DNA from: Liolophura sinensis
Taxonomy: Eukaryota; Mollusca; Polyplacophora; Chitonida; Chitonidae
DNA length: 64,000 nucleotides
Reading direction: 5' to 3'
NCBI RefSeq assembly: GCF_032854445.1
Contig: NC_088295.1
Coordinates: 54,479,249-54,543,248 of the forward strand
The notes under the pieces are model-generated. The model ran no database searches and was not told where the DNA came from. It worked only from the letters and a program-made list of their open reading frames with translations. The translations under genes were made by a program, and so were the position numbers. Below, in pieces: positions 2,772-63,510 of this stretch (positions are counted from its first letter, which is position 1; each line of letters starts with the position of its first letter).

Positions 2772-5700
2772 ATGAGTAAAAGGGATTTTGGGTCATTTCA
2801 CTCTTCAAACGCAGAAGAACTCATCAATGCTTCAGAGGTAGGCGCTATTAAGTTGTGGTGGTATTTTACAGTTGATTGTGTCCCAGCTGTTTATAATTAT
2901 AGTTTACGGTAAATAACCCCAAATTTCGCCCCTAAAAGTGTATTTGAAAAAGGGCAAATTAATATTATATGATATTACCTTTTCAGTTATAGCAAGGGAT
3001 ATTTCCCTACCCATCATGTAATGGACGGGTGAGACATACAAGAAACATTGAATTTGACTACATTTGAAAAGGGGCATTCCTTACATTGCTCAGGAGTGGT
3101 CATAAGACAGAAAATTTTCAATGTGGCTTGCATGTTTAAGCCTCAGATTTGACTACGTTTACAGGGGTATTGTTGAAGTGGTAGAGGCATATCTGAGCTT
3201 AAAATTTCCTTTTCCTAATTAAGCCATTGTACACATTTTACCTGAAAGCTTGCACTACAACTGAATGACAGTCCATGTTAAATAGCCACCCAATCCCCCA
3301 CCACTAACAATGTACCCTTCAAACAGGTAAACCTGCGGATGGTCGTGGATTTTCTCCCGACATAATGCTGACCGCCATTGTATAAGTGAAATATTCTTGA
3401 GTATAGCGTAAAAAAACAATCAAATAAATAAATAAATAAATAACAAACAGGTAAACTTTGTTCTCCCTAATGGCCAACACCCTATGTGTTATTTGTGTTA
3501 TAGTACCCCTAGCATGAGTTAAACATGGAAGGTGAATTGGTATTTGAGTCTTTGGGGTACTGTTTCATGAGTAATATGTAGACATCAGTTTGAAATGCCA
3601 ATGCTCTATATATTACTTGTGATACAGTACCACAATCAAGATTTTAACATTGGAGTTGAGTTGGTGTTTGAGGCTTCAGGGCACTGTTTCACTAGTAATA
3701 TGTAGACAGTTTGGAATGTCAATGTTCTATATCTTACTTGTGTTATAGTACCCCAAACAAAATTTTAACAAAGGAGTTGAATTGCTGTTTGAGGCTTCGG
3801 AGTACTATAAGGCAACTATTATATATACACGAACTGTAGGGTCAAAAATGTTTCTCAACTAGCATTTGGTACAGTCTAGTTATACAAGCAGAGATTCAGC
3901 CTGTGCTGCGACATTTTTGGCAAGACTTTACTAGGGTAAAGCGACGTCAGGCCAGGTTTAGCTAATAGATCAATGTTTAATAGGCTGCTATATCATGATA
4001 TTACCTACATGTAGGGCCTGCCATGTTTGATTTGTTTCTTCACTTGGTCTTTACTTGATGAATTTTTCAGTTAAATGATGGCAGTCAGTTTTATGTGTGG
4101 AGGATATCAGGAATATGGAATAAACCACCTATCTTTGGCAAGTTATTGATGAACTTACCCACATCTTAGTAATGTACAGATATGCACACCACAGGAGCCT
4201 CCGTGGCTCAGGTGGTTAGCGCATTAGCACAGCGCAGTGACCTAGGAGTCTCTCACCAATGCGCTCGCTGTGAGTTCGAGTCCAGTTCATGCTGGCTTCC
4301 TCTCTGGCTGTAAGTGGGAAGGTCTGCTAGCAACCTGCAGATGGTCGTGGGTTTCCCCCGGACTTTGCCCGGTTTCCACCCACCATAATGCTGGCCGCCG
4401 TCGTATAAGTGAAATATTCTTGAGTACGGCCTAAAACACCAATCAAATAAATAAATAAATAAAGATATGCACACCACATTGTTGGGAGAAAAGTGGTCTT
4501 CAGTAAATATTAGACTATGCTAATGGCTGCATGAGTGCGGTTGAGGTTGACCTCACAAGTAGGGATAACAGGCTTTATTTCATAAAATATAATAAATACA
4601 GTTATGTTTTACTGCGTACATATCTGGATCGAATATTGAAAGATATGTAGGCCTTTTCATTCCATATGTGCATGCAGTCTGCACAGAATCTATAAAAGTT
4701 TCACAGTGACATGTTGCTTTGGAATTGCAAATACTAACTGGAAGTTTACATAACAAATATGCTTAATTGGCAGTTTACATAGCAAATATGTAAACTACCA
4801 GTTAGTATCTTCTGCCAGATAAGATGATCCCATAAAAAAATTGGCTTATTGCTACTCTGAAGTTTGTTGTCTTGCCTGATAAAATTTTCCGACTGATTTT
4901 GCTTCAGTATGTATCTTAACTTTCAGCCTTCAATAATATATTGTTTTTCCTTGCTTTAGGTCTGCTATAAACCACCAGATCAACCATTTGACGTGCCTAC
5001 TTTTACAGAGTATCATTCTGAGTCCATCCAGTTCGGAGCAAAGTGTCGCCAGAAACACTTTTACCTGGAGGTGAATATTGTTTCTCCTTGCTTTAGGCCT
5101 GCTATAAACTGCCAGATCAACCATTTGACGTGCCTACTTTTACAGAGTATCATTTTGAGTCCATCCAGTTCGGAGCAAAGTGTCGCCAGAAACACTTTTA
5201 CCTGGAGGTGAATATTGTTTCTCCTTGCTTTAGGTCTGCTATAAACCACCAGATCAACCATTTGACGTGCCTACTTTTACAGAGTATCATTTTGAGTCCA
5301 TCCAGTTCGGAGCAAAGTGTCGCCAGAAACACTTTTACCTGGAGGTGAATATTGTTTCTCCTTGCTTTAGGCCTGCTATAAACCACCAGATTAACCATTT
5401 GACGTGCCTACTTTTATAGCGTGTCATTCTGAGTCCATCCAGTTCGGAGCAAAGTGTCGCCAGAAACACTTTTACCTGGAGGTGAATATTGTTTCTCCTT
5501 GCTTTAGGCCTGCTATAAACCACCAGATCAACCATTTGACGTGCCTACTTTTATAGCGTGTCATTCTGAGTCCATCCAGTTCGGAGCAAAGTGTCGCCAG
5601 AAACACTTTTACCTGGAGGTGAATATAGTTTCTCCTTGCTTTAGGCCTGCTATAAACCACCAGATCAACCATTTGACGTGCCTGCTTTTATAGAGTATCA

Positions 5701-8700
5701 TTCTGAGTCCATCCAGTTCGGAGCAAAGTGTCGCCAGAAACACTTTTACCTGGAGGTGTCGCCAGAGACACTTTTACCTGGAGGTGAATATTGTTTCTCC
5801 TTGCTTTAGGCCTGCTATAAACTGCCAGATCAACCATTTGACATGCCTACTTTTATAGCGTGTCATTCTGAGTCCATCCAGTTCGGACCAAAGTGTTGCC
5901 AGAAACACTTTTACCTGGAGGTTAATATTGTTTCTCCTTGCTTTAGGCCTGCTATAAACCACCCGATCAACCATTTGACGTGCCTACTTTTATAGAGTAT
6001 CATTTTGAGTCCATCCAGTTCAGAGCAAAGTGTCGCCAGAAACACTTTTACCTGGAGGTGAATATTGTTTCTCCTTGCTTTAGGCCTGCTATAAACCACC
6101 AGATCAACCATTTGACGTGCCTACTTTTACAGAGTATCATTCTGAGTCCATCCAGTTCGGAGCAAAGTGTCGCCAGAAACACTTTTACCTGGAGGTGAAT
6201 ATTGTTTCTCCTTGCTTTAGGTCTGCTATAAACTGCCAGATCAACCATTTGACGTGCCTACTTTTATAGCGTGTCATTCTGAGTCCATCCAGTTCGGAGC
6301 AAAGTGTCGCCAGAAACACTTTTACCTGGAGGTGAATATTGTTTCTCCTTGCTTTAGGCCTGCTATAAACCACCAGATCAACCATTTGACGTGCCTACTT
6401 TTACAGAGTATCATTCTGAGTCCATCCAATTCGGAGCAAAGTGTCGCCAGAAACACTTTTACCTGGAGGTGAATATTGTTTCTCCTTGCTTTAGGTCTGC
6501 TATAAACCACCAGATCAACCATTTGACGTGCCTACTTTTATAGCGTGTCATTCTGAGTCCATCCAGTTCGGAGCAAAGTGTCGCCAGAAACACTTTTACC
6601 TGGAGGTGAATATTGTTTCTCCTTGCTTTAGGCCTGCTATAAACCACCCGATCAACCATTTGACGTGCCTACTTTTATAGCGTGTCATTATGAGTCCATC
6701 CAGTTCGGAGCAAAGTGTTGCCAGAAACACTTTTACCTGGAGGTGAATATTGTTTCTCCTTGCTTTAGGTCTGCTATAAACCACCAGATCAACCATTTGA
6801 CATGCCTACTTTTATAGCGTGTCATTATGAGTCCATCCAGTTCGGAGCAAAGTGTTGCCAGAAACACTTTTACCTGGAGGTGAATATTGTTTCTCCTTGC
6901 TTTAGGTCTGCTATAAACCACCAGATCAACCATTTGACGTGCCTACTTTTATAGCGTGTCATTCTGAGTCCATCCAGTTCGGAGCAAAGTGTCGCCAGAA
7001 ACACTTTTACCTGGAGGTGAATATTGTTTCTCCTTGCTTTAGGCCTGCTATAAACCACCAGATCAACCATTTGACGTGCCTACTTTTACAGAGTATCATT
7101 CTGAGTCCATCCAGTTTGGAGCAAAGTGTCGCCAGAGACACTTTTACCTGGAGGTGAATATTGTTTCTCCTTGCTTTAGGCCTGCTATAAACCACCAGAT
7201 CAACCATTTGACGTGCCTACTTTTATAGAGTATCATTCTGAGTCCATCCAGTTCGGAGCAAAGTGTCGCCAGAAACACTTTTACCTGGAGGTGAATATTG
7301 TTTTTCCTTGCTTTAGGCCTGCTATAAACCACCAGATCAACCATTTGACGTGCCTACTTTTACAGAGTATCATTCTGAGTCCATCCAGTTCGGAGCAAAG
7401 TGTCGCCAGAGACACTTTTACCTGGAGGTGAATATTTCATATCTCAGGTTCAGAATCCCTCAGATGATGGCAATCTGCATAAGGCTTCAGGATTCCAATC
7501 AGCAGCTAGTGACACAGTATCATAGTACAGTTTTCCTTTGTAAAGGATGTTGAGTTTTGATTGATTGACTGGTTGATTGACTGGTTGATTGGTTGTTCTT
7601 TGATGCCATTCTCAACAATTTTAGACTTAAATGGTGGTAGTCAATCTTGTAGGTGCAGGGAACCAATGTGCCTAGGGTAAACCTTCAACCTTTGGCATGT
7701 GGCTGGCGAAACTTATCCTCAATGAACAGAAGATTGTGAAAACAGCCCTATGTGGATATTATTGTCACCAACGCCCCTAAAGACAGCAGGTATCCCTGTC
7801 TAAGATTTAACCCACACTTAGTTTGCCTTTTGGTTAAGAGTTGCATAACTTACTCCTTGAGCTGCTCAGTCATACTTCCCATGGATTTTGGGATTTCCAT
7901 TACTGTTACCAATCTCTATACTGCTTGTAATGTGATATTCTCTGAAATTGTGTGAAAGATTTCAAACAATTTTATAATTCGGTGTTAATTCACAAACTTT
8001 ATAAAATATACGGTTACCATAGTGACCAAAAATATTGGTAAAAGTTTTTGTAAGTATCTTGATACTTATTGTTTTAAAAAATGTGATTGTATTGATCAAA
8101 TCTCTTCCTCTTGTATGTTTCTACTTTCAGGATAGCTGTACTTTTATTAATCATGGAGCCATGGGTGCAGTTCTTAAAGAAGCCATGGAAGTAGCCCAGG
8201 TATACATCAGATATTCTCTGGGTGTTTGCGATGGGGAAAAGGGAATATTACTAAAGCAACAGTGCCAAAGTTAGTGTAGGAAGTTGGTGACAAGTTTTTG
8301 CTTTAATGGAGGAAAAAACAAAAACAAATGAACATTATAGTCCATGAGCCAAGGACCAAAATTTCACATATTGCTACCACCCAGGGTGGCCAAATCTCCT
8401 TGCTATTTTTAAGTTGGCATATATCTTTAGTTGTTGTTTTGTTATGATAGCCCTCGCAGATCGGTAGTATTGTAGGGCTTATGCCCCCTTTAATAAACTT
8501 TGTCCAATGAGCTAACTCATACATTGCCAACGGTCATACTATAACAGTGCTATTTGAACTCCCAGTTAACTCTGGAACATAGTGCTTACCTTTTGGAATG
8601 TTTCCTTAACTTATTCAAGCTAATCTCCTCAAACATTAAGGCAGATTTGTTGATGAAAGATGACATTTTAGCCCTCTCGGGGTTGGGAGACGGGTGAGCT

Positions 8701-11700
8701 ACAGGGGGCTAGAAGGACTGAATTAGCAGTTTTCTTTGCAGCCAGAAAGCAACCAGAGAGAAGATATAAAGTTTATGCTTTTTAACATTTTAGGGCATTC
8801 TATCATGGTTGTGTTAACAACTGTTGACTTCAGGTCTGTATATCTGAATAGTAAATTCCAAATGGCACACATTTGGGGTCTACGACCCCAAATGGCACAT
8901 AGTTGGGGTCCATGACCCCAAATGCCAAAGGAAACTGCAAGACTTTTTATTCTTTGTCATTGACCTGTCAAGAAATAGGTTGTAAAAATTTGAAAAATGT
9001 TTGTCTGACATACACTCCATTATAGTGTTTTTTTCTCTGTTTTTTGGTTTAACTTCAAAGTAGACGTTTACACTGCAATGAGTATTTCAGAATAATTTAG
9101 TCCTTAACCTTAGTGTTTGGCGAAAGTTTCAATTACCATTATTCTTAATGGAAAGTCAAAAAGCTGATCAAAGCTTCGCTCTGACATTGTAGTTTTCAGA
9201 CTGGTAGATCTCAGGTAAGGAAATGAACTTTTACTTACCTGAGGTAATGTACCTTAGCTCACTGTAACAATGAGTGTAAATAAAAGAAGTACACAGCTGG
9301 GCATATAAACTGTTATCAACCCAGCTGAAAACCTTGCAAATCTTACATGTAAATGTAGAGGTCATCTGAATATTCAGCTAATAGCTAATACATGAAATAT
9401 AGACAAAACGTGGACTGCTAAATTTTCTTTGTTTCATAAACAATACAAACCACCCTTTTTAACTGGTCTTTTTAACTGAGAGTCCATGATATGCTGACGT
9501 TTCTCTTGCTTTTTGTAAATTTCCGCAACACCTTATAATGTGATCTTAATTTACTTCTACCGACCCTATAAACATGTTAGTTCCAATTACGTTTGGCCAC
9601 TTAAGGTGGTACCATTATCATGTCTGGCCCGTGGACTATTATCAGAAAGACAGTGGAAAACGGAATCTTGAAATAGGTGTTCTTATTTTTCAATATTTAT
9701 TTTGTTACTTAAAAAAAGTTTGATGTTCAGACTGTAAGGTGGGCTTGCTGGACATATTTTGGTGTGTAGTGCTTTATGTGTTTAACCCTGTGAGCCATAT
9801 ATCATCCTGTATCCTAATATTTAGAAGTGGCAGATCTACACAGAGAGCCAACCACTGAGGGTCATTGACAGAGAGCTTATTCCTCAACTGGTGCATTCCG
9901 CCAGGCGTTTGGCAAAATTTGTCAGTAAGTATTTCTCCAGCAAGAATTTAAATTTGTCAGTAAGTATTTCTCCAGCAAGAATTTAAATTTGTCAGTAAGT
10001 ATTTCTCCAGCAAGAATTTAAATTTGTCAGTAAGTATTTCTCCAGCAAGAATTTAAATTTGTCAGTAAGTATTTCTCCAGCAAGAATTTAAATTTGTCAG
10101 TAAGTATTTCTCCAGCAAGAATTTAAATTTGTCAGTAAGTATTTCTCTAGCAAGAATTTAAATTTGTCAGTAAGTATTTCTCTAGCAAGAATTTAAATTT
10201 GTCAGTAAGTATTTCTCCAGCAAGAATTTAAATTTGTCAGTAAGTATTTCTCCAGCAAGAATTTAAATTTGTCAGTAAGTATTTCTCTAGCAAGAATTTA
10301 AATTTGTCAGTAAGTATTTCTCCAGCAAGAATTTAAATTTGTCAGTAAGTATTTCTCCAGCAAGAATTTAAATTTGTCAGTAAGTATTTCTCTAGCAAGA
10401 ATTCAAATTTGTCAGTAAGTATTTCTCTAGTAAGAATTCAAATTTGTCAGTAAGTATTTCTCTAGTAAGAATTCAAATTTGTCAGTAAGTATTTCTCCAG
10501 CAAGAATTTTTTTATGCTACAACGTTTATTTGCCCTCCCATCATCATAGTGTTATGTTTGGATGATCACAATTCATATGTTATGTGTCCACACTCTTCGT
10601 GACATCACCTTGCCCAAACATTTCAACGCAGTGGGTTCAGTCCACATACGTGTAAATTTTTAAGTTTTCTGTATGTCAGGTCTGCACAAAATACGAAAAA
10701 GGATTATTGTGTGTTTTCTTACGATGTGCTGGAGTCCACATAATTCCAGTTGAATGACTTTAGAATTTATGAAATTTGACGAAAAGAATAACTAATATAG
10801 TTTCGAGTGGTTTGCCTTGATATGAAACTGATTTAAATCATGAATGATCTTTTTCGGCCTTTAGTATGTGGTCATTTCTTGTAGTACTGTTTAGAAATGT
10901 ACATTAAACTTGCCACATTTGGTAGTTTTCATGTCAAGAAAACAAAAGCAAATTTTTATCAACAGTAATCAATTATTAATTCAGACAAAAATTTATAGAA
11001 TCATATGTCCCACTTTTTGAAAAAAAAGGCTTACCTACATAACAAAGGTAACTTTGTTGTTATTTTCAGACTGTGACCCAAGTGAGCTTGTGTTAGTGGC
11101 CAATGTGTCCTCAGCTCTCAGTGCTGTGGTGAACAGTCTTCAGTTCCAGCCTGGAGAGAAGATCTTCTGCCTCAGTGTCACTTATGGTAAGGATCTAAGG
11201 TAGCTTAAGTGAAAAGTAAAAGAATTTTGATCATGTGCAACACTAAAATACCATTGTTTTTTTCGTGATAACTATAGATTATGAAAATTAATGGTTCTTA
11301 GTTATCCAGGTACAATGTATGCGTTCGACATAAGGCTCAGTCTTAACTTGATTTATATATTAAAATTAACCAGTGTTGTGTCATTAAACAAAGGCCTTGG
11401 TCACCTTCAACACGTAACATTATCACTTCAGAGAGGCCTCTGTAGCCGAGGTGGTTAGTGCCAGCGTGGTGTAATGACGCTGGAGGCTATCACCGATGAG
11501 GATATTGTGAGTTCAAGCCCGGCTCATGCTGGCTTCCTCTGTGGCTGTACGTGGGAAGGTCTTCAGCAACCTGCGGATGGTGGTCATGAGTTCCCCCATC
11601 ACCCCCACCCCCCTGCCCCCTATCACCCTCTCCCAGGCTCTGTGCGGTTTCCTCCCCACCACAATGCTGGACTCCATCATACAAGTGAAATAAGGCATAA

Positions 11701-14700
11701 AACACCAGTGAAATAAAATATATAAGCAAGTAAGTATCACTGCAGCAAGAAGGGTTCTAAGGTCTTAAACTTGAGTCATTTTGTTGTCTGTTGGTCAGGG
11801 GCATTAAAGAAGCTCCTGAGACACAGGTGTTCAGAGACAGAGGCAGTAATCCAGGAAGAACTTGTACAATTCCCACTTACTGGAAAACAGCAGGTTTGTC
11901 AGATTTTCTTTAGTAGTAAATACATGTAAATGTACAATGAAAAGCCAACAGTAAATCATGCGACTCCTGATGATGAGGAACACCAGGTGTGGGTTCAGTT
12001 CCACCCTTGGACAGACAATCCAGCATTCCATAGTAGGCCCTTTGTGTTGCTCTGAGGCCCTTTGTCCCGCTCTGAGGCTCTTTGTGCTGCTCTGAGGCCC
12101 TTTTTGCTGCCTTTCATTCTTTGAAAGACCTTGTACCTTCCACTTATACTCTGTGCACGTCTATGTCACTGGCACATAGAAATGTTTTTTCTGTAACTTG
12201 CCAGAGGAGCATGTGATGTTGGGTGTTTGAATAAAGGTTGAAAAGTGTGTAGATACCTGTAGATGGCAGTGGAGAGTATGGAAAACTCAATGTCATTTTT
12301 GTGAAAAATGGCGATTTATTTGATAAGGTTTCTATACTTTCTGTTGTATGTTACTGTTGTACATATATATACACATATACCAATGTTGTAAATTTATTTC
12401 ACTGCGACCGAAAGGGAAGCTAATCTGCAGTTGTGAGACTGTTGTCAAATATTTTGTTATAAATACAGGTACTCGACCTTGTGAAGGATAAACTGGAACC
12501 AGGCACGAAACTGGCTGTATTTGACCATATCCCTAGCAATACACCATTTGTTATGCCATTGGAGGAGATCATACCACTGTGTAAGGAAAGGTGAGTCGAG
12601 GCAGAAAATGAGAGACAGATGCTTTGTGCAGTCTGTTGTCTTCCTTCCATTATTGTCTCAAGAGAAAATCATGTTTGTAAACAAACCAGGATTCACAGTA
12701 AATGTTGAATGAATTGCTCATTTTAGGAGTGACTCAAGGGGAATAACTCCCAAAACATTAACACAGAAACTCAAAATTTGATGTGCATTAACAGAGTGTA
12801 GAAAAATTCTACACCATACCATATAATTATAGGGGAGTTCCAGTGCTGATTGATGGAGCCCATGCCCTGGGTTCTCTCCCCTTGAATCTGGCTGCTCTTG
12901 GTGCAGATTACTACACATCTAATGCTCACAAGTGGCTCTGTGCTCCTAAAGGATGTGCCTTCCTCTATGCCCGCAAAGAACTTCAACACGACATCAACCC
13001 ATGTGTCATTTCCCATGGATTTGAAGGTGGATTTCATTCCAAATTTATATGGCAAGGTAAACTGATTTACTTTTTTTGCATACATTTAATTGAAATGTGT
13101 ATTTGCATGAAGCTGATTGTTAAACTGTTTAACAATTGTGATTGTCTCTCCAACTGTCAGACATTGGTTTCTGAGTGCTAACTCCACTATTAAAATGTTA
13201 TCCAGTTTTGATCACCTTTTGTGTGCAACTTTATCTTATGGAACCTCAGATCAGGTTTGAAAAGATTTCCTTGCAATAACTTCACTAAATATTATTGAAT
13301 TGTGATAAAATTTTGTTTGAAGTTTCACTTTGTACAACATCAGATCAAGTTCAAAACCTTGTCGGATCCATTTGTAAGTTTTGCAGATTTTGATTTCCTT
13401 GATTCAGATCTTGAAACATTGTTTGATTTGATCAAATTTTGTCGGCAGATTCATTTCCTGGCCTCTCAGATCAACATAAAAAATCATTGAATTAGCTTGT
13501 TAAATTGTTACAAAACAACTTGTTTGCAGGTCTGAAAGATTACAGTGCCTTCATAGCGCTGAGAACAGTTCTGGATTTCTGGGAAGTGGTTAAACCTGAG
13601 AATATAAGACTATATATCAATTCACTTACTAAAGATGCTGGTAAGTTTATTAATAAGTGGTACTGTAATTCATCCACCTTTTCGCATGTTTGCAACGTGT
13701 TTATTCAAGCATATTCTGAAGGCATTATTCTGTGTTGACAGATAAAATGATATTTTTTGTGAAGCCCTGAAATTTACCAAGTCTTCAACATGAAATTAAA
13801 AGTGTACATAAATTTCACTAAAAGTTGCTCTTTCATGTGTGAAAAGGTTTAGGAATTAGGGTGGTTTGCAATAGTCTGGCCGGCAGTGTTGTAATTATTT
13901 CTACATTGGATTAAGTAGTGCAATGTGTGTTTCACAAAAGTATGATATTTTAAAAAGTAGTGCATGTATTGTATTGAGGCAAGGCAAGGCCAAGGCCAGG
14001 ACCTCAGGGAGGGCACTCGGTGACACTGATTACCCTAAGTTTGTCACGGATAATATTTGTGTTCATTTAGGGTACTTTTCTAATTATGATCAAATTGGCG
14101 TATAAAAACATGACATAGTCCAATATCAATCTTCTATAAATCTTAATAATTTTTTGGACTATAAATCTTGACATAATCCCCATGGTACCTCATGTATCTA
14201 GTGGTTTGGAGTCACCTTCTGACATAATGGCCATGGTACCTCATGTATCTTTTGGTTTGGAGTCACCTCCTGACATAATCCTCATGGTACCTCATGTATC
14301 TAGTGGTTTGGAGTCACCTCCGGATATAATCCTCATGGTACCTCATGTATCTTGTGATCTGGACTCACCTGTTGACATAATCCCCATGGTACCTCATGTA
14401 TCTTGTGATCTGGAGTCACCTCCTGACATAATCGCCATGGTACCTCATGTATCTTGTGGTTTGAAGTCACTTCCTGACATAATCCCCATGGTACCTCATG
14501 TATCTTTTGGTTTGGAGTCACCTCCTGACATTATCCCCATGGTACCTCATGTATCTTGTGATCTGGAGTCACCTCCTGACATAATCCCCATGGAACCTCA
14601 TGTATCTTGTGGTTTGGAGTCACCTCCTGACATAATCCCATGGTACCTCATGTATCTTGTGATCTGAAGTCACCTCCTGACATAATCCCCATGGTACCTC

Positions 14701-16603
14701 ATGTATCTTGTGATCTGGAGTCACCTCCGGACATAATCCCCATGGTACCTCATGTATCTTGTGGTTTGGAGTCACCTGCTGAGTTACTGAGATTCGTTCC
14801 TAGTAACATTTATTGTCGCCAAGAGGTTCTCCTGTATTTATTCACGTGACATTTTTCTTTTTACCATTAATTGCTTTACTTTTGCAGCCACCATGTTGAC
14901 TAAATGCTGGGATACTGCTTTGGCCGCACCAGAGGATATGTTCAGTAAGTGAGCTGATCAGACAGTTAAACTGTAACCATGTGTGAAACCTAATCAGTTA
15001 TCAACAAAAACAAAATCAAACTAAAGATGGTAGCACATTATATTTGTTTGTTCATGTAAGAAATCATAACTTAAATTGAAGTTTTTTTCTGATATATATA
15101 CATATTGTCAATGAGTGAATCATTTATGAAATTAATGTTGTGAGTTAATGTAGTGTTTGAACATCAATGGTTTTGGGCAATATTGTTCTACTTGACAAAC
15201 ATTTATTCAAGAAAAGCATGTTTGTCCAGACATGGTTGTTCAGACCTGTTTGTTCAGACATAGATTTCATAATCCATTAGCATTGTGTGATGTGGCAGTA
15301 TTATTAACACTTATAATAAGCATACAGCCATCATTCAAGTCACAATCATTTTGTACAAGACTGATAATGTCAACGCATCAGAAATATTTATGTGGATACA
15401 TTAATCTGACTGTATTTATGTGGATACATTAATCTGACTGTATTTATGTGAATACATTAATCTGATTGTATTTATGTGGATACATTAATCTGACTGTATT
15501 TATGTGGATACATTAATCTGATTGTATTTATGTGGATACATTAATCTGACTGCATTTATGTGGATACATTAATCTGACTGTGTTTATGTGGATACATTAA
15601 TCTGACTGTGTTTATGTGGATACATTAATCTGACTGTATTTATGTGGATACATTAATCTGACTATGTTAAACACTTTGTACAGGATCCATGTGCCTTGTG
15701 CAACTGCCGGCAGCACTATACCAGACATCATCAACTGTCAACTACAACACAGCAGAGGAAATTCAAAGTATCTTATTCCACAGATATAACATAGAAGTGA
15801 GATTATGCATGAATTTTTTTTTAATTATTATTTTCTTTTAATTTTCTGTTATTGAGGTTTATTGATGTACTCAAGAGTATTTCAATTACCTGTGGTAGGT
15901 CAGGTTAACGAGTGGAGTGCAGAGCCTTTGTTGAGCTAATAACTGATCGTTCCCTAACTTCATAACTCTAACATGCTCATTAAGAAACAAACTTCAAAGG
16001 CAGGCATTTTAAAATGCTTAGTTATGATGTCAGCACTTTAACTGCAAAATGTTATGAAACACCAAAGATATGGCTATAAAATTATTGTCTTGGAATTTGT
16101 GTGATTAATTTTAATTAAACTCTCTAAAGGCTTTATCATATGTAGAAGTTTAGAAGTTTTTCAGCCATAACATGACTAAAAGCGTGGTGTGACTTTTTAT
16201 TCCACTTTCACAGAAAGTGAGTGATATTAATGTGGGTTTGTCTCTCTGTTACTCTTTCATTTCTGTGCAATAACACAACTCCTAATATTGTCAAATTTTG
16301 ATAATGTGGGCTGCTTTACTTTGTAGAATCTATGCTAGTTTTTGGAAAACCACCATAAATTTTGCATATTTAATGCTCTCCTTAGTTCTTAGTGGTTAGA
16401 GTTTTTTATCGGGTATTTGGATTTGCTACTTCCGACATAATTTTATATATTATATCTGTTGTCAGGTTCCCATCAAAGCAGTACAAGGTGAGCTTTATGT
16501 TAGAATATCCGCTCACATTTACAATCAGATGTCAGATTATGAGACGCTCGCTGAGGCCATCACACAACTGGTGAAGGAAAAGTGGACACGAGGCAACACC
16601 TGA
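2772..16603 (+). CDS. PLP-dependent class V aminotransferase-like protein (isopenicillin N epimerase / cysteine desulfurase superfamily)
   Basis: Twelve coding exons join in phase: 2772-2837, 4960-5070 (or any one of 18 tandem copies up to 7427), 8131-8199, 9825-9924, 11070-11186, 11799-11893, 12469-12590, 12833-13056, 13530-13640, 14888-14944, 15684-15796 and 16466-16603. The product is 440 aa, usual for the family. Key motifs are INHGAMG near residue 67, DGAHALGS around 234 (Asp pairing with the pyridine nitrogen) and SNAHKW, where Lys260 should form the PLP Schiff base. Family knowledge gives a fold-type I PLP enzyme acting on amino or thiol-amino substrates. The true substrate cannot be read from sequence, and no mitochondrial targeting sequence is evident. 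The gene is unusual in holding four tandem arrays: a multiplied exon 2, a multiplied exon-4 donor, a 51-bp array in intron 10 of the scheme (before exon 10) and a 28-bp array just before exon 11. Confidence 0.93.
3333..3444 (+). mobile_element. tRNA-derived SINE, 5'-truncated copy
   Basis: The 3' part of the SINE (ACCTGCGGATGGTCGTGG ... AGTGAAATATTCTTGAGTA ... CAATCAAATAAATAAAT) is flanked by a 12-bp target duplication AAACAGGTAAAC at 3321-3332 and 3445-3456. The duplication shows insertion by target-primed retrotransposition. Confidence 0.85.
3480..3815 (+). repeat. Imperfect tandem repeat, about three units of roughly 125 bp
   Basis: Recurring blocks are TGTGTTATAGTACCCC, GGAGTTGAATTG, TTTGAGGCTT and ACTAGTAATATGTAGACA. 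They appear about three times in order, with substantial divergence. It lies in intron 1 of the aminotransferase gene. Confidence 0.6.
4055..4600 (+). repeat. Second-family dispersed repeat, split by a SINE
   Basis: The left part (4055-4193) and right part (about 4479-4560) together match a continuous copy at 44260-44440 (AATGTACAAATATGCACACC, then TTGGTGGAAAGCAAGTGG). The SINE at 4194-4462 interrupts it. The nesting shows that this family is older than the SINE insertion. Confidence 0.7.
4194..4462 (+). mobile_element. tRNA-derived SINE, full-length copy
   Basis: The element starts with GCCTCCGTGGCTCAGGTGG, which contains a pol III A-box (TGGCTCAGGTGG). A B-box (AGTTCGAGTCC) follows, then a unique body and an AATCAAATAAATAAAT tail. 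A 16-bp target duplication AGATATGCACACCACA flanks it at 4178-4193 and 4463-4478. Related copies occur throughout the window on both strands. Confidence 0.92.
4941..7440 (+). repeat. 137-bp tandem array, 18 copies of aminotransferase exon 2
   Basis: Each unit is a 111-nt exon plus a 26-nt spacer that runs from the GT donor to the next CTTTAG acceptor. Exon copies start at 4960, 5097, 5234, 5371, 5508, 5645, 5810, 5947, 6084, 6221, 6358, 6495, 6632, 6769, 6906, 7043, 7180 and 7317. Between copies 6 and 7 there is a 28-bp partial duplication of the exon end. All copies keep the AG and GT borders (copy 7 has GTTAAT). Seventeen are open in the gene frame; copy 4 has CAA changed to TAA near residue 8. 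Residue differences include V/A at 1, P/L at 5, V/M at 12, TEY/IAC/IEY at 16-18 and S/F/Y at 20. Any one copy joins exons 1 and 3 in frame. Confidence 0.97.
7555..7810 (+). repeat. Second-family dispersed repeat copy
   Basis: TTGATTGGTTGTTCTTTGATG, then GGTGGTAGTCAATCTTG, AACCTTTGGCA and TATTGTCACCAACGCC resemble the copy at 44220-44460. The first bases are a short GATTGACTGGTT tandem stretch. Confidence 0.5.
8200..9824 (+). other. Intron 3 of the aminotransferase gene
   Basis: Between the exons ending at 8199 and starting at 9825. The only structure seen is a short 30-bp tandem repeat (CCAAATGGCACA ... GGGGTC) with 2.4 copies at 8858-8930. Confidence 0.5.
9914..10510 (+). repeat. 35-bp tandem array copying the exon-4 5' splice site (17 donors)
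   Basis: Unit: AAATTTGTCA, the last ten bases of exon 4, followed by GTAAGTATTTCTCCAGCAAG and AATTT. The string GTCAGTAAGT occurs at 9921 and then every 35 bp to 10481, seventeen in all. The true donor is the first one, because use of a later one would shift the frame and reach a stop. Units vary at only a few positions (CCAG/CTAG, ATTTA/ATTCA), so the array is young. Confidence 0.97.
11428..11725 (+). mobile_element. tRNA-derived SINE, diverged full-length copy
   Basis: The head GAGGCCTCTGTAGCCGAGG, the B-box region GTGAGTTCAAGCCCGGC, the body GGCTTCCTCTGTGGCTGTA and the tail CATAAAACACCAGTGAAAT match the family. The middle carries an expanded C-rich tract. It lies in intron 5 of the aminotransferase gene. 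Confidence 0.85.
12035..12115 (+). repeat. 20-bp tandem repeat, four copies
   Basis: AGGCCCTTTGTGTTGCTCTG and close variants start at 12035, 12055, 12075 and 12095. Intronic. Confidence 0.85.
14170..14782 (+). repeat. 51-bp tandem array, 12 copies
   Basis: CATGGTACCTCATGTATC recurs at 14181, 14232, 14283, 14334, 14385, 14436, 14487, 14538, 14589, 14639, 14690 and 14741. One unit is a base short. As 51 is divisible by 3, the array gives an incidental 161-aa open frame of 17-residue repeats. It sits in the intron between exons at 13530-13640 and 14888-14944, so it is not expected to be translated. Confidence 0.95.
15387..15664 (+). repeat. 28-bp tandem array, ten copies, abutting exon 11
   Basis: TTTATGTGGATACATTAATC plus CTGACTGTA-type endings recur every 28 bp from 15387 to about 15664. 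The array stops about 20 bp before the acceptor of the exon starting at 15684, so it occupies the branch-point region of that intron. Confidence 0.95.
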
Positions 16604-20789: not shown

Positions 20790-21700
20790 CCCCACTGATA
20801 CCAGGTGTATATTATAGGAATTCAGAACTAACTAACACCAGGTTCATGCATTTACCGTAGTATATGTAGTTCGAAGCAGTTGTAAACTGCACCTGGTGCA
20901 ATTTCTGTGAAAAGATACAGTGAAGAGATATGTCACCATGGTAAATGCGCTTAACACAGCACTGGGATAGCTGCATAGAACTGACCCCTGAGTTGTGATT
21001 AACACCAGGTGCATAGTTCAGTTATTATACTCTTTTAACACCAGTTATCTCTAACAACAGGTTCATACATATACTGTAGTACATGTAGTTCAGAGTTGTG
21101 ATTAACACCAGGTTCATAGTTCAGTTATTATACTCTTTTAACACCAGTTATCACTAACAACAGGTTCATACATGTACTGTAGTACATGTAGTTCAGAGTT
21201 GTGATTAACAGCAGGTGCATAGTTCAGTTATTATACTCTTTTAACACCAGTTATCACTAACAAACAGGTTCATACATGTACTGTAGTACATGTAGTTCAG
21301 AGTTGTGATTAACAGCAGGTGCATAGTTCAGTTATTATACTCTTTTAACACCAGTTATCACTAACAACAGGTTCATACATGTACTGTAGTACATGTAGTT
21401 CAGAGTTGTGATTAACAGCAGGTGCATAGTTCAGTATTATACTCTTTTAACACCAGTTATCACTAACAACAGGTTCATACATGTACTGTAGTACATGTAG
21501 TTCAGAGTTGTGATTAACACCAGGTGCATAGTTCAGTTATTATACTCTTTTAACACCAGTTATCACTAACAACAGGTTCATACATGTACTGTAGTATACG
21601 TAGTTCAGAGTTGTGATTAACACTACTGTATAGTTTATTAGTAATAACAGTTTCATATAATATGTAGTTCAGAGTTTTGACTAAAAAACAGGTTCATACT
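20790..21700. repeat. 103-bp tandem array with a palindrome in each unit
   Basis: GTAGTTCAGAGTTGTGATTA recurs at about 21085, 21188, 21292, 21395, 21497 and 21600. Degenerate units extend on both sides. Each unit holds TACATGTACT-GT-AGTACATGTA, a near-perfect inverted repeat, and two copies of a TTAACACCAG-type motif. Confidence 0.9.
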
Positions 21701-26920: not shown

Positions 26921-27294
26921 TTTAAAAAGTAATGTGACATACATGTGGTTTCTGAAATGTAACTGAGCTCTATGATATTTAAAATTACTGTATGTAAGAA
27001 CAACTTCAATCTTCAAAATTCATCTGAGGACAGAAAAAGGGATTTGTTTTTCCAGCGCAGGAATGTGCAGGGGTGTCACAATATGCTGACTTGGTTGAGA
27101 TCACTTCCACTGAGCTTACTTTCGGAAATCTGCGGCAATTTTTAGGAGGAACAGGGATACACAATGTTACCTCTGTGATACTTCACCAACACAGTATAAA
27201 GAGAGGTGTTGAAATAGCCACCTATTTCATGGCTATCATGGGTGTGGTCTAGCTAGCATGTTATTTTACAATTCTGACCTTCATCGCTACCTCA

Positions 27295-28370
27295 ATGGAT
27301 ATGAGAGGGGTCAGCAACACGTCACTGGTATGATAGGGGTCAGCAACACGTCACTGGTATGAGAGGGGTTAGCAACACTTCACTGGTATGAGAGGGGTCA
27401 GCAAGACATCACTAATATGAGAGGGGTCAGCAAGACATCACAGGTATGAGAGGGGTCAGCAAGACATCACTGGTATGAGAGGGGTCAGCAACACGTCACT
27501 GGTATGAGAGGGGTCAGCAACACTTCACTGGTATGAGAGGGGTCAGCAAGACGTCACTGGTATGAGAGGGGTCAGCAACACATCACTAATATGAGAGGGG
27601 TCAGCAACACATCACTAATATGAGAGGGGTCAGCAACACATCACTGGTATGAGAGGGGTCAGCAACACGTCACTGGTATGAGAGGGGTCAGCAACACATC
27701 ACTGGTATGAGAGGGGTCAGCAACACGTCACTGGTATGAGAGGGGTCAGCAAGATGTCACTAATATGAGAGGGGTCAGCAACACATCACAGGTATGAGAG
27801 GGGTCAGTAACACATCACTGGTATGAGAGGGGTCAGCAACACTTCACTGGTATGAGAGGGGTCAGCAACACGTCACTGGTATGAGAGGGGTCAGCAACAC
27901 ATCACTGGTATGAAAGGGGTCAGCAACACGTCACTGATATGAGAGAGGTCAGCAACACTTCACTGGTATGAGAGGGGTCAGCAACACTTCACTGGTATGA
28001 GAGGGGTCAGCAAGACGTCACTGGTATGAGAGGGGTCAGCAACACATCACTGGTATGAAAGGGGTCAGCAACACGTCACTGATATGTGAGGGTCAGCAAC
28101 ACGTCGCTGGTATGAAAGGGGTCAGCAACACGTCACTGGTATGAGAGGGGTCAGCAACACTTCACTGGTATGAGAGGGGTCAGCAACACCTCACTGGTAT
28201 GAAAGGGGTCAGCAACACATCACTGGTATGAGAGGGGTCAGCAACACTTCACTGGTATGAGAGGGGTCAGCAAGATGTCACTGGTATGAGAGGGGTCAGC
28301 AAGACGTCACTGGTATGAGAGGGGTCAGCAACACATCACTGATATGAGAGGGGTCAGTAACACATCAATT
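27295..28370. repeat. 29-bp minisatellite, about 37 copies
   Basis: The unit is GGTATGAGAGGGGTCAGCAA followed by CACNTCACT. It repeats without unique spacers for about 1.08 kb. Recurring variants are AAGACGTCAC, AATATGAGAG and TATGAAAGG. It lies between the MRPL23 start codon and its likely 5' UTR exon. Confidence 0.97.
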
Positions 28371-58200: not shown

Positions 58201-61200
58201 GTGCTGCAGGTACTTAATATATGGGGAGAGAGACTATTAACAGTAAAGCGCTCTATCTTACCGATCACTCTTCGGGTGGCTTCTAACGACATGTATTATT
58301 TTGCCAGGAGGGAAGAGGGGTTTGTGGGCGGAAAGCCCTATGGCTGAATCGACCGGATGAGCCGTTACATCACGCTCCATCTTCTCCATTTCTATCTTCA
58401 TCTCGTACAGGTCCATGTTCTGACCCACATCATCCCCTTTACAACACACCAGCTTGGACGCGATGATCTTCCACTGTGACAGATGAGATGATGTTAAAGG
58501 AACAGAAAACACTACCGTGAAGTATACATGAAGTAGATGAAAGACCATTACACACTGTCCACAAAAATAGTTCGATATATTTTTTTTACGACTTTTTTTT
58601 TCAACCCAGTAAAATGCATTTGAAACTTTGGATTTTACGATGGAATTTTCTGACCATACTGGGACCAGTGACGTCACATCATGTTTTGTTTTTCTATTTA
58701 AAACACACAAACTGCAAGATTTCACCATTCTAAACGCACATACATATAGATCTATGAATGTCTTTACTAAATGGACCTTGAAAAGAACCCTGAAAGTTGA
58801 CCTAGATACTTCACAATTTCAAGCAAAAATATGGACATGATATCACTGATACCTCTAGGTCACCTCAGATCACTGTAGAATTTGATGTTTTAAATCCATT
58901 TCACATGCTGTGAAAAATGGTAAAAAAAAAAAAAAGACGAAAGTAGATTTTTTTCTAACATTTTTTTACCCTTTCTGTGGATAAATTCAGTTTCACATGC
59001 TTTGTTTTAAGCCATTTTAACAACTTGTAACTGTGTTTATCGGAAAAGCATAAGTTTCTGCACCAAGAGTGAAATTTTGTTATATTTATTTGCATCTTAA
59101 AATGCACATTTCACAGCCAAAATTTAGGTCATTTACTGTGAAGCCTTAAGTGCCAATTTTATCGGTTTTGATACAATCAAATACTGGAAAAAAATCTCAT
59201 GAAGAGAATACTTGGCTGAGATATTTCTATAATAATAAATAATGTAAAAATGAGACACAGTCTTACCTTTGGTTCAGTGCTCTGTTTGATCACATTAATC
59301 AGGTCTGATCTCAGACATTCCATCTGATGTAACCCTATCCTGAAAACCAAGACAAACCACTCATAAATTTAGGTGCTTACGATTCCTGGGTCCCATTTCA
59401 ATACACGACTAGCTCAAACAGTTTGACAGATACATAAAACACTTGCTTTTTATTTCTTAATATGGAGTATATGATATGTCCAAACAAATACAAGAACAAA
59501 AAAGCTTCTCAGCTTGCTACCTGAGGTGTACAAATGGCTTTAAACTACAGTTTTGGAAAGGCCCTAGCGTTCAGTCACAAGACTGGGTCAGATTTTTGCC
59601 ACAAGAGTTCAATTCAAGCTTGGAGATCTTTAGATCACTTACCTTGGAACAACATCTTTACCAACCACAACTGATGTAATAAAATGCTTGGTTTCTTCAA
59701 CACAGCTGGGACTTGAAAATGAGACACGAAAGATTCAAAATAATTAGAATAGTAACATGTGACAAAGTTAAAGAATTACACAAACTATGCATGCTATGTA
59801 TGCAATAAATGAGTTCTGTAGCTTTGTACTTTCTGTCAGTAAGCTTTGGCAATTGGTTTAACTGGACAAAGAATCCAGCAAGCTTGGATACAAAAGGATA
59901 TATTTATTTATTTATTTGTGTATTTATTGGTGTTTTACGATGTACTCAAGAATATTTCACTTATATAACAGCAGCCAGCATTATGCTGGGAGGAAAGCGG
60001 GCAGAGCGGGCAGGGGAAACTCACGACCATCCGCACGTTGCTGGAAGACATTCCCACTTACGGCCGGAGAGGAAGCCAGCATGAGCCGGACTTAAACTCA
60101 CAGCAAACGCATTGGTGAGAGGCTCCTGGGTCATTACGCTATACTAGCGCCCTAAACAACTGAGCCATGGAGGCCTTCCAAAAGGATACTTTTGACTTGA
60201 GATAAAGATCTCAAAGGATTACTACATGTGATCTGATTATACATGTTAATCAGATAATGAAACTACATGAACTGTGACAGGAACAGTGGCATGGACATCT
60301 GGATACTCTAAATGATTCTAGTGACACAGTAAACAATGAGATAGTATAAAGGTACACAGCTCTGGAATATAAACACTCGTTGCATATTTTCAAAATTTCA
60401 CTTTCATTAGACAAAACAGAATCTGAATAATTCACAAGCATGAAAATTAGAAATGATTTTTCTTGGTGTGATAAAAGGTTTACACATGGATTTCACACTG
60501 AATATCTTACCTGAGCAGGCCCCCTGGTGGTGAAAAGGCGTAACAGTGTATCTTGGGATATTCTTGTTTCAGCAGAATAGCGAGGATTGAAGCGGTGCCT
60601 GCTCCCAGTGAATGACCCACCAACACCAGACCGTAGTCAGGTGTGCCTTTACTCTACATAAATACGTAAAACATGACGTGTTACACATGCTTGTTATTCG
60701 AAACCATTATACATTTTTGTAGATATATATACACAAACAACTCACTTCCCATGTATTTATCTACTGTTTTACCATGTTGAAAATTTCACTAATACAGTGC
60801 TTATGAGATATACAGATAGAGGATGCAGTACAACAAGTTACCTGTTTATCAGATAAACAAAGGTATCATACATTTTAATAAACATGTAGACTTACAGGGT
60901 CTCGGGCAAAAGCATCTGGTAAAATGTTTTCCTGTTTCAATTTCTTCTGAATATAGACAGCAGCTTGTACCATTCCCTGTGGAAATTAAAACACAAATAC
61001 AGGCTACAGCTTGTACCATTCCCTGTGGAAATTAAAATACAAATACAGACTACAGCTTGTACCATCCATTGTGGAAATTAAAATACAAATACAGACTACA
61101 GCTTGAACATTTGCTGAGAAAATTACATCATAAATATAGACAGCAGATAGCACCATTCCCTTTGGAAATTAAAACACAAATACAGACTACAGCTTGTACC

Positions 61201-63510
61201 ATTCCCTGTGGAAATTAAAACACAAATACAGACTACAGCTTGTACCATTCCCTGTGGAAATTAAAATACAAATACAGACTACAGCTTGTACCATTTGCTA
61301 AGAAAATTACATCATAAATATAGACAGCAACTTGTGACATTCTCCCTGAAAACACATGGTATGTAAAGATAGATCATAACTTTTACCATTCCCTTAGCAG
61401 AACATAATACTTTTACAATTGTGGTACAAATGTGGTCATATTTGTGATATATTTATTTGAATGGTGTTTTATGATGTACTCAAGAATATTTCACTTATAC
61501 GACGGCGACCAGCATTATGGTGGGAAGAAACCGGGCTTGGAAAGCCACGACCATCCGCAGGTTGCTGTCAGACCTTCCCCACGTACAGCCGGAGAGGAAG
61601 CCAGCATGAAATCTGATCATATGAATATAGCGTTCATATACAGGATGATGTATTACATTATATTTCATACTTTTATTATATGTTGTATCATAAAGTAAAA
61701 TACGTGTAATTAATACTCATGAGATATTATCATCAGGCCCTGTTGCATAATACCACACTTACTTTGATCTAACCACACATACTAAGTGCCTTACTTCAGT
61801 ACCATGCTGGTGCCAACAAATACAACCATGAGCAGAGGGCCGATTGGCTGTGATTTTAGAAATATCTGTGGCTGACAAGGCTAGAAATAATCTACTATTT
61901 TGAAATTCAAATCATTCAGAGACATACTAGCCCTTGCCTTTCCTATGCGCCTAAGCAGCCCAGTTAGTCGTTTGTTCTGTCTGTTGTTTGGTCAGTCAAT
62001 TCTTTGACGTTTTATCTTTTAAACAATGGCCTCCTATCTTATAACATGGGTTATACACTTACTCAGGGGTCTTAGTGCAAGAATACATGAAATCCTGTAG
62101 GAGGGATGTACGAGCTATTGTGAATTTGTGCTTGTTTTTAACACTAAGGTATTCTTACCTGGTGGCCGTACCAGTCCTCTCTAATAGGGTCAATGGGCAG
62201 GGGCTCAGGCTCTGCCTTCAGGTCAGTGATGATGTCCTACACATAACAAACAAACATCACACATCTGGGCACAACATCTAAATAAATATTTTATGGACAT
62301 AGGTCTTCCATTTCTGAAATTTCAAGTCTTTCCCGGACTATTCATTGGTAAACTCCATGTATATTTAAAGATGTTTTCAGCAATAATTTTTTGTAAAATG
62401 CTCCCTTCTAAATCTCATTATTCAACCATGTCTAAGCTGGTCTCACTGTGTCAATTTTAGTGGAAATTTTCCATAGAGTTGTCTCCCATGCTTCTGTTAT
62501 ATGAGCCATGAAAGCCTCGGGCTGTTATGGTTGTTTGATCAAACACGTTCCTCTATAAACAATGGGTAAATAACAATGCTTACAGTTTGCTTCCTTATCC
62601 CCAATCAAATCAAATGATGCAGTGTGGGCTATGAAAGTGACAAAATAGAAGGTTACAGTCAATTAAATTACCTGTGTCAATGGGTGTATGATTTATATAA
62701 GATATACTTACCTGTAATGACAGAGTCCCTCGTATACTTAGAACAACATTTTTGTGCTGGTGATCCAGGGATACAAAGAATGGAGTTTCACCAACCTAAA
62801 GGCAATAGATTAGAAATGTCTATATCTAAATTGGTAAGACAATGTATGTACAAGTCTGTTGTCATGTTTAGGATCTAGCATCCATTTTTATAACATCTTA
62901 ATGTCTGACAGCAACCTGCGGACGGTCATGGGTTTCCTTGGGCTCTGACCGGTTTCCTCCCATCATAATGCTGGCCGCTGTGGTATAAGTGAAATATTCT
63001 TGAGTACTGCGTAAAACACAAATCAAATAAATAAATAAATAAATAAATATAAAATCTTCATCTTTCCCATTATGGACATAATAGTATTTCTCTCTTGTGG
63101 CTGAGAACTTTGAGATCCAGTGAGAAAACACAAATGACAGCAAACAATCACTGGTATTTGAATATGTATTTTCACATGGAGGATCGGAATAAGAAAGAGT
63201 AAATATTATCTCTTGATGACTCATAACACACCTGCCATAAAAAAAAAATAAAAAAAAACATAACAAAAAAAAATAATACTCATATCAACTCATACCGTAA
63301 TTAGTAATAATAAACCTTATAACCAACAATGACCAGAATCGAGGACACTGACAACTTACATCTACGTGGTAGGTTACGTAGACTATATCCTTCTCAGAGA
63401 GGCCACTGATCTTGTTCAGAGCAGCAAAGTTACAATGACAGCAGTTGTCATTCACCAGTATGCTGTGTTTAGGAGTCTTGCGGCCACACAGCGCTAGACA
63501 ACAACAGCAC
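55269..63510 (-). CDS. DAGLA: sn1-specific diacylglycerol lipase, alpha-like (3' ten exons)
   Basis: Ten exons join in phase on the minus strand: 63510-63360, 62795-62712, 62236-62159, 60976-60896, 60653-60511, 59711-59643, 59339-59267, 58473-58262, 57490-57358 and 56552-55269. They give 768 residues, from [11 protein letters not shown] to a stop. The lipase core has [21 protein letters not shown], then [14 protein letters not shown] with the GxSxG nucleophile serine, [19 protein letters not shown] (catalytic Asp) and [14 protein letters not shown] (catalytic His). Family knowledge: a plasma-membrane enzyme hydrolysing diacylglycerol to 2-arachidonoylglycerol. The four transmembrane helices lie beyond the right edge. 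The last exon encodes a 428-residue Ser/Pro-rich tail, which favours the alpha over the short-tailed beta type. The regulatory insert between Asp and His is compact, and the protein ends QTDV. Confidence 0.95.
57968..58095 (+). mobile_element. tRNA-derived SINE, 5'-truncated, with target duplication
   Basis: Contains CAGTTTCCTCCCACCATAAT and GAGTACGGCGTAAAACACC, with the AAATAAATAAAT tail. The 13-bp duplication ATATTTATTCATC flanks it at 57955-57967 and 58096-58108. Located in a lipase intron, antisense to the gene. Confidence 0.9.
59901..60178 (-). mobile_element. tRNA-derived SINE, full-length copy
   Basis: Reads in reverse from TATTTATTTATTTATTTG to CTGAGCCATGGAGGCCTTC. Flanked by the 10-bp duplication CAAAAGGATA at 59891-59900 and 60179-60188. 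In the reverse sense it has A-box TGGCTCAGTTG and the CCAATGCG ... GAGTTTAAGTCCGGC B-box region. It lies in a lipase intron, same strand as the gene. Confidence 0.93.
60961..61400 (-). repeat. 46-bp tandem array copying a lipase 3' splice site
   Basis: In gene orientation the unit is TTTCCACAG followed by GGAATGGTACAAGCTG, i.e. the acceptor and first 16 bases of the exon at 60976-60896, plus AT-rich intron sequence. In plus coordinates the CAGC landmark recurs at 60961, 61007, 61053, 61099, 61141, 61190, 61236, 61282 and 61325. Units at 61099, 61282 and 61325 lack a clean acceptor. The functional exon is the last one met by the spliceosome. Confidence 0.92.
61447..61612 (-). mobile_element. 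tRNA-derived SINE, 5'-truncated
   Basis: TATTTATTTGAATGGTGTTTTATG, GACGGCGACCAGCATTATGG and AGCCGGAGAGGAAGCCAGCATG match the SINE in reverse; the tRNA-like head is missing. Confidence 0.85.
62908..63052 (+). mobile_element. tRNA-derived SINE, 5'-truncated
   Basis: GACAGCAACCTGCGGACGGTC through GGCCGCTGTGGTATAAGTG to an AATCAAATAAATAAAT tail. It lies in the lipase intron between exons 63360 and 62795, antisense to the gene. Confidence 0.87.

What the first reader, a model, noticed from the sequence alone, without database searches (positions are those of the whole stretch)
4941..7440. Eighteen tandem copies of one coding exon, nearly all splice-competent
Seen: a 137-bp array in which every unit is a 111-nt exon (37 codons, phase 0 at both ends) with an AG acceptor and GT donor. 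Seventeen copies are open. The copies differ mostly by amino-acid changes (residues 1, 5, 12, 16-18, 20, 25-26, 29, 31), while only two silent changes were noticed. The 26-nt spacer is too short to be spliced, so adjacent copies cannot be joined to each other, and reading through a spacer shifts the frame. Established: this steric arrangement enforces mutually exclusive splicing elsewhere. Inference: the gene could make up to 17 isoforms differing in the segment just before the PLP-fold glycine motif. Non-adjacent copies could also be joined to give variable numbers of 37-aa repeats. The alternative is a neutral coding VNTR with one copy used.
Basis: partly seen in the sequence, partly recalled or inferred. 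Interest (0 to 1): 0.85.

Follow-up and report, generated by a model that had tools for sequence, protein, structure and literature searches.

The report
Eighteen-copy exon minisatellite in chiton gene
In a chiton (a marine mollusc), one 37-codon exon of an otherwise intact enzyme gene has been copied 18 times head to tail, most likely as a neutral, unstable repeat that the splicing machinery tolerates rather than a built-in isoform switch, although RNA data could still show that several copies are used.

Summary
The window holds 18 copies of a 137-bp unit (exon copies 4960-7427), each a 111-nt phase-0 exon with AG and GT. 17 are open and copy 4 has a stop. The gene is intact: 12 exons, 440 aa, a class-V aminotransferase / isopenicillin-N-epimerase-like enzyme of the chiton Liolophura sinensis. 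Exon 2 is genuinely coding; its end matches a conserved family motif. The 26-nt spacer is a chimera of the ends of introns 2 and 1, joined at a 5-bp microhomology.

The "mostly amino-acid changes" pattern is what neutral mutation gives: 14 nonsynonymous to 4 silent, null 12.8 ± 1.8, P = 0.35. Changes hit family-conserved residues. No docking/selector pairing was found. A second array in the same gene repeats the exon-4 donor 17 times with every copy intact, yet only the first donor yields a full protein, so intact splice sites are not evidence of use.

Best reading: a "mirage"-type minisatellite (tandem exon-intron boundary repeats, described in amphioxus), here carrying a whole exon and tolerated because almost any single copy gives a readable protein. 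Regulated mutually exclusive splicing is possible but unsupported. No RNA evidence could be examined. Interest is moderate.

The parts
2772..2837 (+). exon 1 (MSKRDFGSFHSSNAEELINASE), phase 0 end
   Evidence: spliced CDS; a homologous exon 1 is found in the C6 duplicate
4960..7427 (+). array of 18 exon-2 copies, 137-bp unit (111-nt exon + 26-nt spacer)
5071..5096 (+). typical 26-nt spacer GTGAATATTGTTTCTCCTTGCTTTAG: 5' end of intron 2 fused to 3' end of intron 1 at microhomology ATATT
   Evidence: comparison of upstream flank, spacer and downstream flank
5371..5481 (+). copy 4, stop at codon 8 (TAA)
5645..5783 (+). copy 6 with a 28-bp tandem duplication of its 3' end, giving two donors
5810..5920 (+). 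copy 7, A27P and R30C, weaker donor GTTAAT
5947..6057 (+). copy 8, G26R at a family-conserved glycine
6632..6879 (+). copies 13 and 14, R30C at a family-conserved arginine
8131..8199 (+). exon 3, conserved NHGAMGA motif
9825..9924 (+). exon 4, ends at the first of 17 tandem donors
9915..10509 (+). second boundary array: 35-bp unit x17, each with the exon-4 donor TTTGTCA|GTAAGT
   Evidence: single unit in the C6 duplicate
11070..16603 (+). exons 5-12 of the same gene, including catalytic-lysine region SNAHKWLCAPKG (exon 8, 12833-13056)
14169..14782 (+). intronic 51-bp x12 minisatellite (intron 9)
15385..15663 (+). intronic 28-bp x10 minisatellite ending about 20 bp before exon 11

Best explanation
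This is a minisatellite whose repeat unit happens to contain a complete coding exon. Shown: the founder was a 137-bp tandem duplication (exon 2 plus about 26 bp of intron ends) with a 5-bp ATATT microhomology at the junction, and the array now holds 18 copies. Inferred: it grew and is partly homogenised by unequal exchange. Inferred: it persists because the exon has phase 0 at both ends and the spacer is too short to be an intron. The spliceosome must therefore take one copy (or non-neighbouring copies), skip the rest as intron, and still produce a readable enzyme, so unused copies drift neutrally. Copy choice is probably set by position and kinetics (copy 1 has the native upstream branch-point context, copy 18 the native downstream context) rather than by a regulated programme.
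For: Mutation types are 14 N: 4 S against a spectrum-matched null of 12.8 +/- 1.8 (P = 0.35), and one stop is expected by chance. Purifying selection with omega 0.2-0.3 on the copies is rejected (P = 0.0001-0.003). Changes hit G26 and R30, positions conserved in 46/80 and about 52/80 bacterial relatives (with a one-column gap placement). Splice dinucleotides surviving in all copies are expected half the time by chance (P about 0.53). Internal control: the 35-bp x17 array keeps 17 intact exon-4 donors though only the first gives a full ORF, and an old duplicate of the gene on C6 has a single unit of it. The gene is minisatellite-rich: 4 arrays in 13.8 kb against 0.69 expected from 120 kb sampled. 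The same kind of structure, with normal splicing by RT-PCR and length instability, is reported as 'mirages' in amphioxus globin and Adh3 genes (PMC3087553). The rest of the gene is intact.
Against: The N:S test has little power (18 changes) and does not exclude diversifying selection: omega = 3 gives P = 0.16. Twelve copies look fully usable, so use of several copies is physically possible. Exon diversity (4.2%) exceeds spacer diversity (1.4%), though the fractions of variable sites (17/111 and 3/26) are similar. No RNA, population or sister-species data were available here. Exon 2 is missing from the C6 duplicate, so its single-copy ancestor was not seen.
Confidence: 0.72

Rival explanations
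1. A regulated mutually exclusive exon cluster: different copies are chosen in different tissues, giving up to 17 N-terminal isoforms of the enzyme.
For: Phase-0 exons with intact splice sites in all copies. The spacer puts any branch point far below the ~50-nt donor-branch-point steric limit cited in PMC7969005 and PMC5740500. There are 15 distinct peptides.
Against: Neutral N:S ratio. A stop in copy 4 and damaged conserved residues in copies 7, 8, 13 and 14. No docking/selector pairing above shuffled controls. Near-identical copies with the same splice sites leave little for a selector to distinguish. Steric exclusion does not bar i to i+2 joining.
Confidence: 0.1
2. Stochastic use: several copies are spliced in at random (one per transcript, sometimes two or more non-adjacent), giving a noisy mix of nearly equivalent proteins, some with extra 37-aa repeats. 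This does not serve a programme.
For: Acceptors 2-18 (9.2-11.7) and most donors (7.6) score alike. 17 single-copy transcripts, exon-2 skipping and i to i+2 joins are all in frame.
Against: No RNA evidence either way. Copy 1 (native upstream intron) and copy 18 (native downstream intron) have better context than the inner copies. In amphioxus the authentic unit was used (PMC3087553).
Confidence: 0.14
3. Assembly artefact: the copy number was inflated or collapsed.
For: Tandem repeats are hard to assemble; the assembly had 14X coverage (PMC11068029).
Against: HiFi reads of mean length 8.3 kb should span the 2.5-kb array about 9 times on a mean-length estimate. 17 of 18 copies differ in DNA sequence. 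Exact copy number may still vary between haplotypes (heterozygosity 1.24%).
Confidence: 0.03

Closest known systems
'Mirage' minisatellites of amphioxus (Adh3; globins BflGb6 and BflGb9; PMC3087553 and references)
   Same: Minisatellite-like tandem duplications spanning exon-intron boundaries, many units keeping AG/GT, unit size 150-160 bp in BflGb6, concerted evolution of copies, gene otherwise normally organised. The 35-bp array here is exactly this type (repeated 5' splice site).
   Different: Reported cases repeat one boundary. Here the 137-bp unit carries a whole exon with both splice sites and a spacer too short to splice, in a mollusc, with 18 copies. Length polymorphism and RNA were not tested here.
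Internal tandem repeats in human segmental-duplication genes (PMC2812944)
   Same: Minisatellite-sized repeats in or at the edges of coding exons that alter exon-intron structure, kept or spliced out, copy-number variable.
   Different: Those lie within exons or at exon-intron boundaries, where they can create introns. Here whole exon units are repeated with a spacer shorter than any workable intron.
Mutually exclusive exon clusters (Dscam1, Mhc, OGDH, alpha-tropomyosin)
   Same: Tandem homologous exons, equal phase, and (in steric cases) a donor-branch point distance below about 50 nt.
   Different: Those are typically ancient, diverged, conserved and regulated, with introns of normal length. 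Here copies are about 96% alike, neutral in N:S, with a stop and a 26-nt spacer.
Isopenicillin-N-epimerase-like / class-V aminotransferase enzymes (Pfam PF00266; Egt2 and cystine C-S lyase in PDB)
   Same: The host gene's family match, the NHG motif and the SNxHKW lysine region.
   Different: An N-terminal extension of about 24 residues in exon 2 has no counterpart in most bacterial relatives; substrate unknown.

Membership tests
Mirage-type minisatellite | Tandem repeat units spanning exon-intron boundaries | tested here: met
Mirage-type minisatellite | Units with splice signals that do not disturb the reading of the gene | tested here: inconclusive
   The CDS is open with a single copy; actual splicing was not observable.
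Mirage-type minisatellite | Length instability between haplotypes, individuals or somatic cells | not testable with these tools
   Only one haploid assembly held. For array 2 the C6 duplicate has one unit against 17.
Mirage-type minisatellite | Concerted evolution or homogenisation of units | tested here: met
   96% mean identity, shared variants shuffled across copies, no trend with distance
Mutually exclusive exon cluster | Homologous tandem exons of the same phase with splice sites | tested here: met
Mutually exclusive exon cluster | A mechanism forcing inclusion of only one copy | tested here: inconclusive
   The 26-nt spacer bars neighbours only; i to i+2 leaves a 163-nt intron and is in frame. 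No docking/selector pairing.
Mutually exclusive exon cluster | Selective constraint or conserved divergence of the variant exons | tested here: not met
   N:S equals the neutral expectation; stop and damaging changes present. Power is low (18 changes).
Mutually exclusive exon cluster | Junction reads for several copies and none joining copies | not testable with these tools
   No RNA data accessible.
Class-V aminotransferase (PF00266) | Profile match over the curated cut-off and PLP-lysine region | tested here: met
   86.2 bits against cut-off 21.5; SNAHKW aligned to SNCHKW of Egt2

The most novel reading that the evidence does not exclude
A minisatellite acts as a self-renewing isoform generator. 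Unequal exchange keeps producing exon variants, and a sub-minimal spacer plus phase-0 ends make nearly every copy spliceable in frame, so each individual expresses a personal, possibly somatically shifting mixture of enzyme N-termini.
Probability: 0.07. Interest if true: 0.85.

Novelty: new variant of a known kind. Interest (0 to 1): 0.42.

Why it matters
It shows how a gene can carry an 18-fold exon expansion without visible loss of coding capacity: phase-0 ends plus a spacer too short to splice act as a buffer. It extends boundary-spanning minisatellites ('mirages') from amphioxus to a mollusc and to a whole exon. Two such arrays in one gene, one of which can yield the full protein from only one unit, also warn that 'many open, splice-competent copies' is not evidence for isoform diversity. 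Published RNA-seq from five tissues of the same species makes the isoform question directly testable.

Tried and rejected
Excess amino-acid change as a sign of selection: rejected, equals the null. Docking/selector RNA pairing with introns 1 and 2: none above shuffles. A long read-through exon across spacers: stops in all frames. A single-copy exon 2 elsewhere in the genome for polarising: none found; the C6 duplicate lacks exons 2-3, and the C13 paralogues matched only elsewhere in the protein. Higher-order repeat structure: no clear lag pattern despite TRF's 411-bp row. Amphioxus as the source: the GFP family was not found (uninformative), and the mitochondrial gene order is the chiton-like molluscan one. 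Structure prediction was not run, since the question is about splicing. Searches for published exon-bearing minisatellites in molluscs found none; the library is incomplete.

Full report
SOURCE. The window lies in a 609-Mb, 632-contig assembly. Its mitochondrial contig has the chiton-like molluscan gene order (cox1-cox2-D-atp8-atp6 on one strand, MCYWQGE cluster; recognition of the order is from my own knowledge). Size and scaffold number match the published chiton assembly of Liolophura, first named L. japonica and later corrected to L. sinensis (609.5 Mb, 632 scaffolds, PacBio HiFi 14X, mean read 8,347 bp; PMC11068029, PMC12441733).

THE GENE. The array is exon 2 of a complete 12-exon gene (2772-16603) with canonical GT-AG junctions and an uninterrupted 440-residue CDS. 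Pfam gives Aminotran_5 (86.2 bits). The nearest solved structures are the C-S lyase Egt2 and class-V aminotransferase/cysteine desulfurase chains. The nearest bacterial relatives found have 33-40% identity. Exon 2 is genuinely coding: its last 13 residues, FGAKCRQKHFYLE, align with a family motif (F-G-x-x-[LI]-R-x-x-W/F-x-L-D/E), with G in 46 of 80 relatives, R in about 52, W/F in 79 and L in 71. The first 24 or so residues are an extension without counterpart in most relatives. Most of the variable residues lie there.

THE ARRAY. There are 18 units at 137-bp steps, with one 165-bp step caused by a 28-bp duplication behind copy 6. All 18 keep AG and GT, 17 give a full-length open transcript, and copy 4 has TAA at codon 8. 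There are 15 distinct peptides. The spacer reads GTGAATATTGTTTCTCCTTGCTTTAG: its left part is the start of intron 2 (GTGAATATT|TCATATC after copy 18) and its right part the end of intron 1 (ATATT|GTTTTTCCTTGCTTTAG before copy 1), joined at ATATT. This is the footprint of one founder duplication by microhomology. The array sequence occurs nowhere else in the genome.

SELECTION. The mutation types are 14 nonsynonymous (one a stop) and 4 silent. Placing mutations of the same spectrum at random gives 12.8 +/- 1.8 nonsynonymous (P = 0.35 for 14 or more), with 0.69 stops expected. Omega of 0.2-0.3 is rejected (P = 0.0001-0.003), omega 1 fits (P = 0.37), and omega 3 cannot be excluded (P = 0.16). Changes fall on the family-conserved residues G26 (copy 8) and R30 (copies 7, 13, 14). 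Mean diversity is higher in the exon than in the spacer (4.2% against 1.4%), but the fractions of variable sites are similar (17/111, 3/26).

SPLICING. The donor-branch point distance across a 26-nt spacer is far below the ~50-nt steric threshold used in the literature (PMC7969005, PMC5740500), so neighbours cannot be joined at the annotated sites. Copies i and i+2 are separated by a 163-nt potential intron and would join in frame, so strict mutual exclusion does not follow. Each exon also has an inner acceptor-like site whose use would frameshift. Skipping exon 2 altogether is in frame too (403 aa). Pairing of the unit with either flanking intron does not exceed shuffled controls, so a Dscam-type docking mechanism is not supported. 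The splice-site weight matrices used were written from general knowledge of human-like consensus values, not trained on this species.

INTERNAL CONTROL. The same gene has a second splice-site array: 35 bp x17 at 9915-10509, each unit carrying the exon-4 donor TTTGTCA|GTAAGT. All 17 donors are intact, yet only the first gives the full protein; every other one stops at residue 136. Intact splice sites in young tandem copies therefore do not show use. A degraded, intron-containing duplicate of the gene on contig C6 (L131) has exon 4 with one 35-bp unit only, so that array grew in the active gene after the duplication or shrank in the copy. Exons 2-3 were not found in the duplicate. The gene has 4 arrays in 13.8 kb against 0.69 expected from a 120-kb sample (a small sample).

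INTERPRETATION. The parsimonious reading is a minisatellite whose unit includes an exon, tolerated because phase and spacer length make almost every outcome readable. The closest described class is the amphioxus 'mirages': boundary-spanning minisatellites with AG/GT in many units, concerted evolution, length instability and apparently normal splicing (PMC3087553). Exon-altering internal tandem repeats are also known in human duplicated genes (PMC2812944). The whole-exon unit, the number of copies, the sub-minimal spacer and the occurrence in a mollusc make this a variant of that kind. Which copy is spliced is not known. I expect copy 1 or copy 18, which have native flanking intron on one side, but this is inference.

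Noticed in passing
window 9915-10509: 35-bp x17 array repeating the exon-4 splice donor; only the first donor gives a full reading frame.
   Followed up: yes
L131 (G000:C6:39852400-39862300), minus strand: Degraded unprocessed duplicate of the gene: exon 1, exon 4 with a single 35-bp unit, exons 5-8; exons 2 and 3 not found; stop in the exon-8 remnant.
   Followed up: partly
window 14140-14664: Intronic 51-bp x12 minisatellite is open for 175 codons in one frame (unit a multiple of 3): another example of an open frame without evidence of coding.
   Followed up: partly
window 20990-21623, 27292-28367, 60950-61295: Further minisatellites (103 bp x6, 29 bp x37, 46 bp x7.5); the window has 7 arrays in 64 kb (9.4%) against about 1.8% of 120 kb sampled elsewhere.
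   Followed up: partly
L028 and L029 (G000:C13 about 13.37-13.39 Mb): Two tandem paralogues of the enzyme (34-43% identity in pieces), very alike to each other.
   Followed up: no
G000:C99: Contig with at least seven tandem copies of the mitochondrial COX1 region at about 15.5-kb spacing, probably an assembly product of circular mtDNA.
   Followed up: no
window 4191-4464 and many other places: Dispersed SINE-like element (GCCTCCGTGGCTCAGGTGGTTAGCGC ... AATAAATAAATA), several copies in the window on both strands.
   Followed up: no
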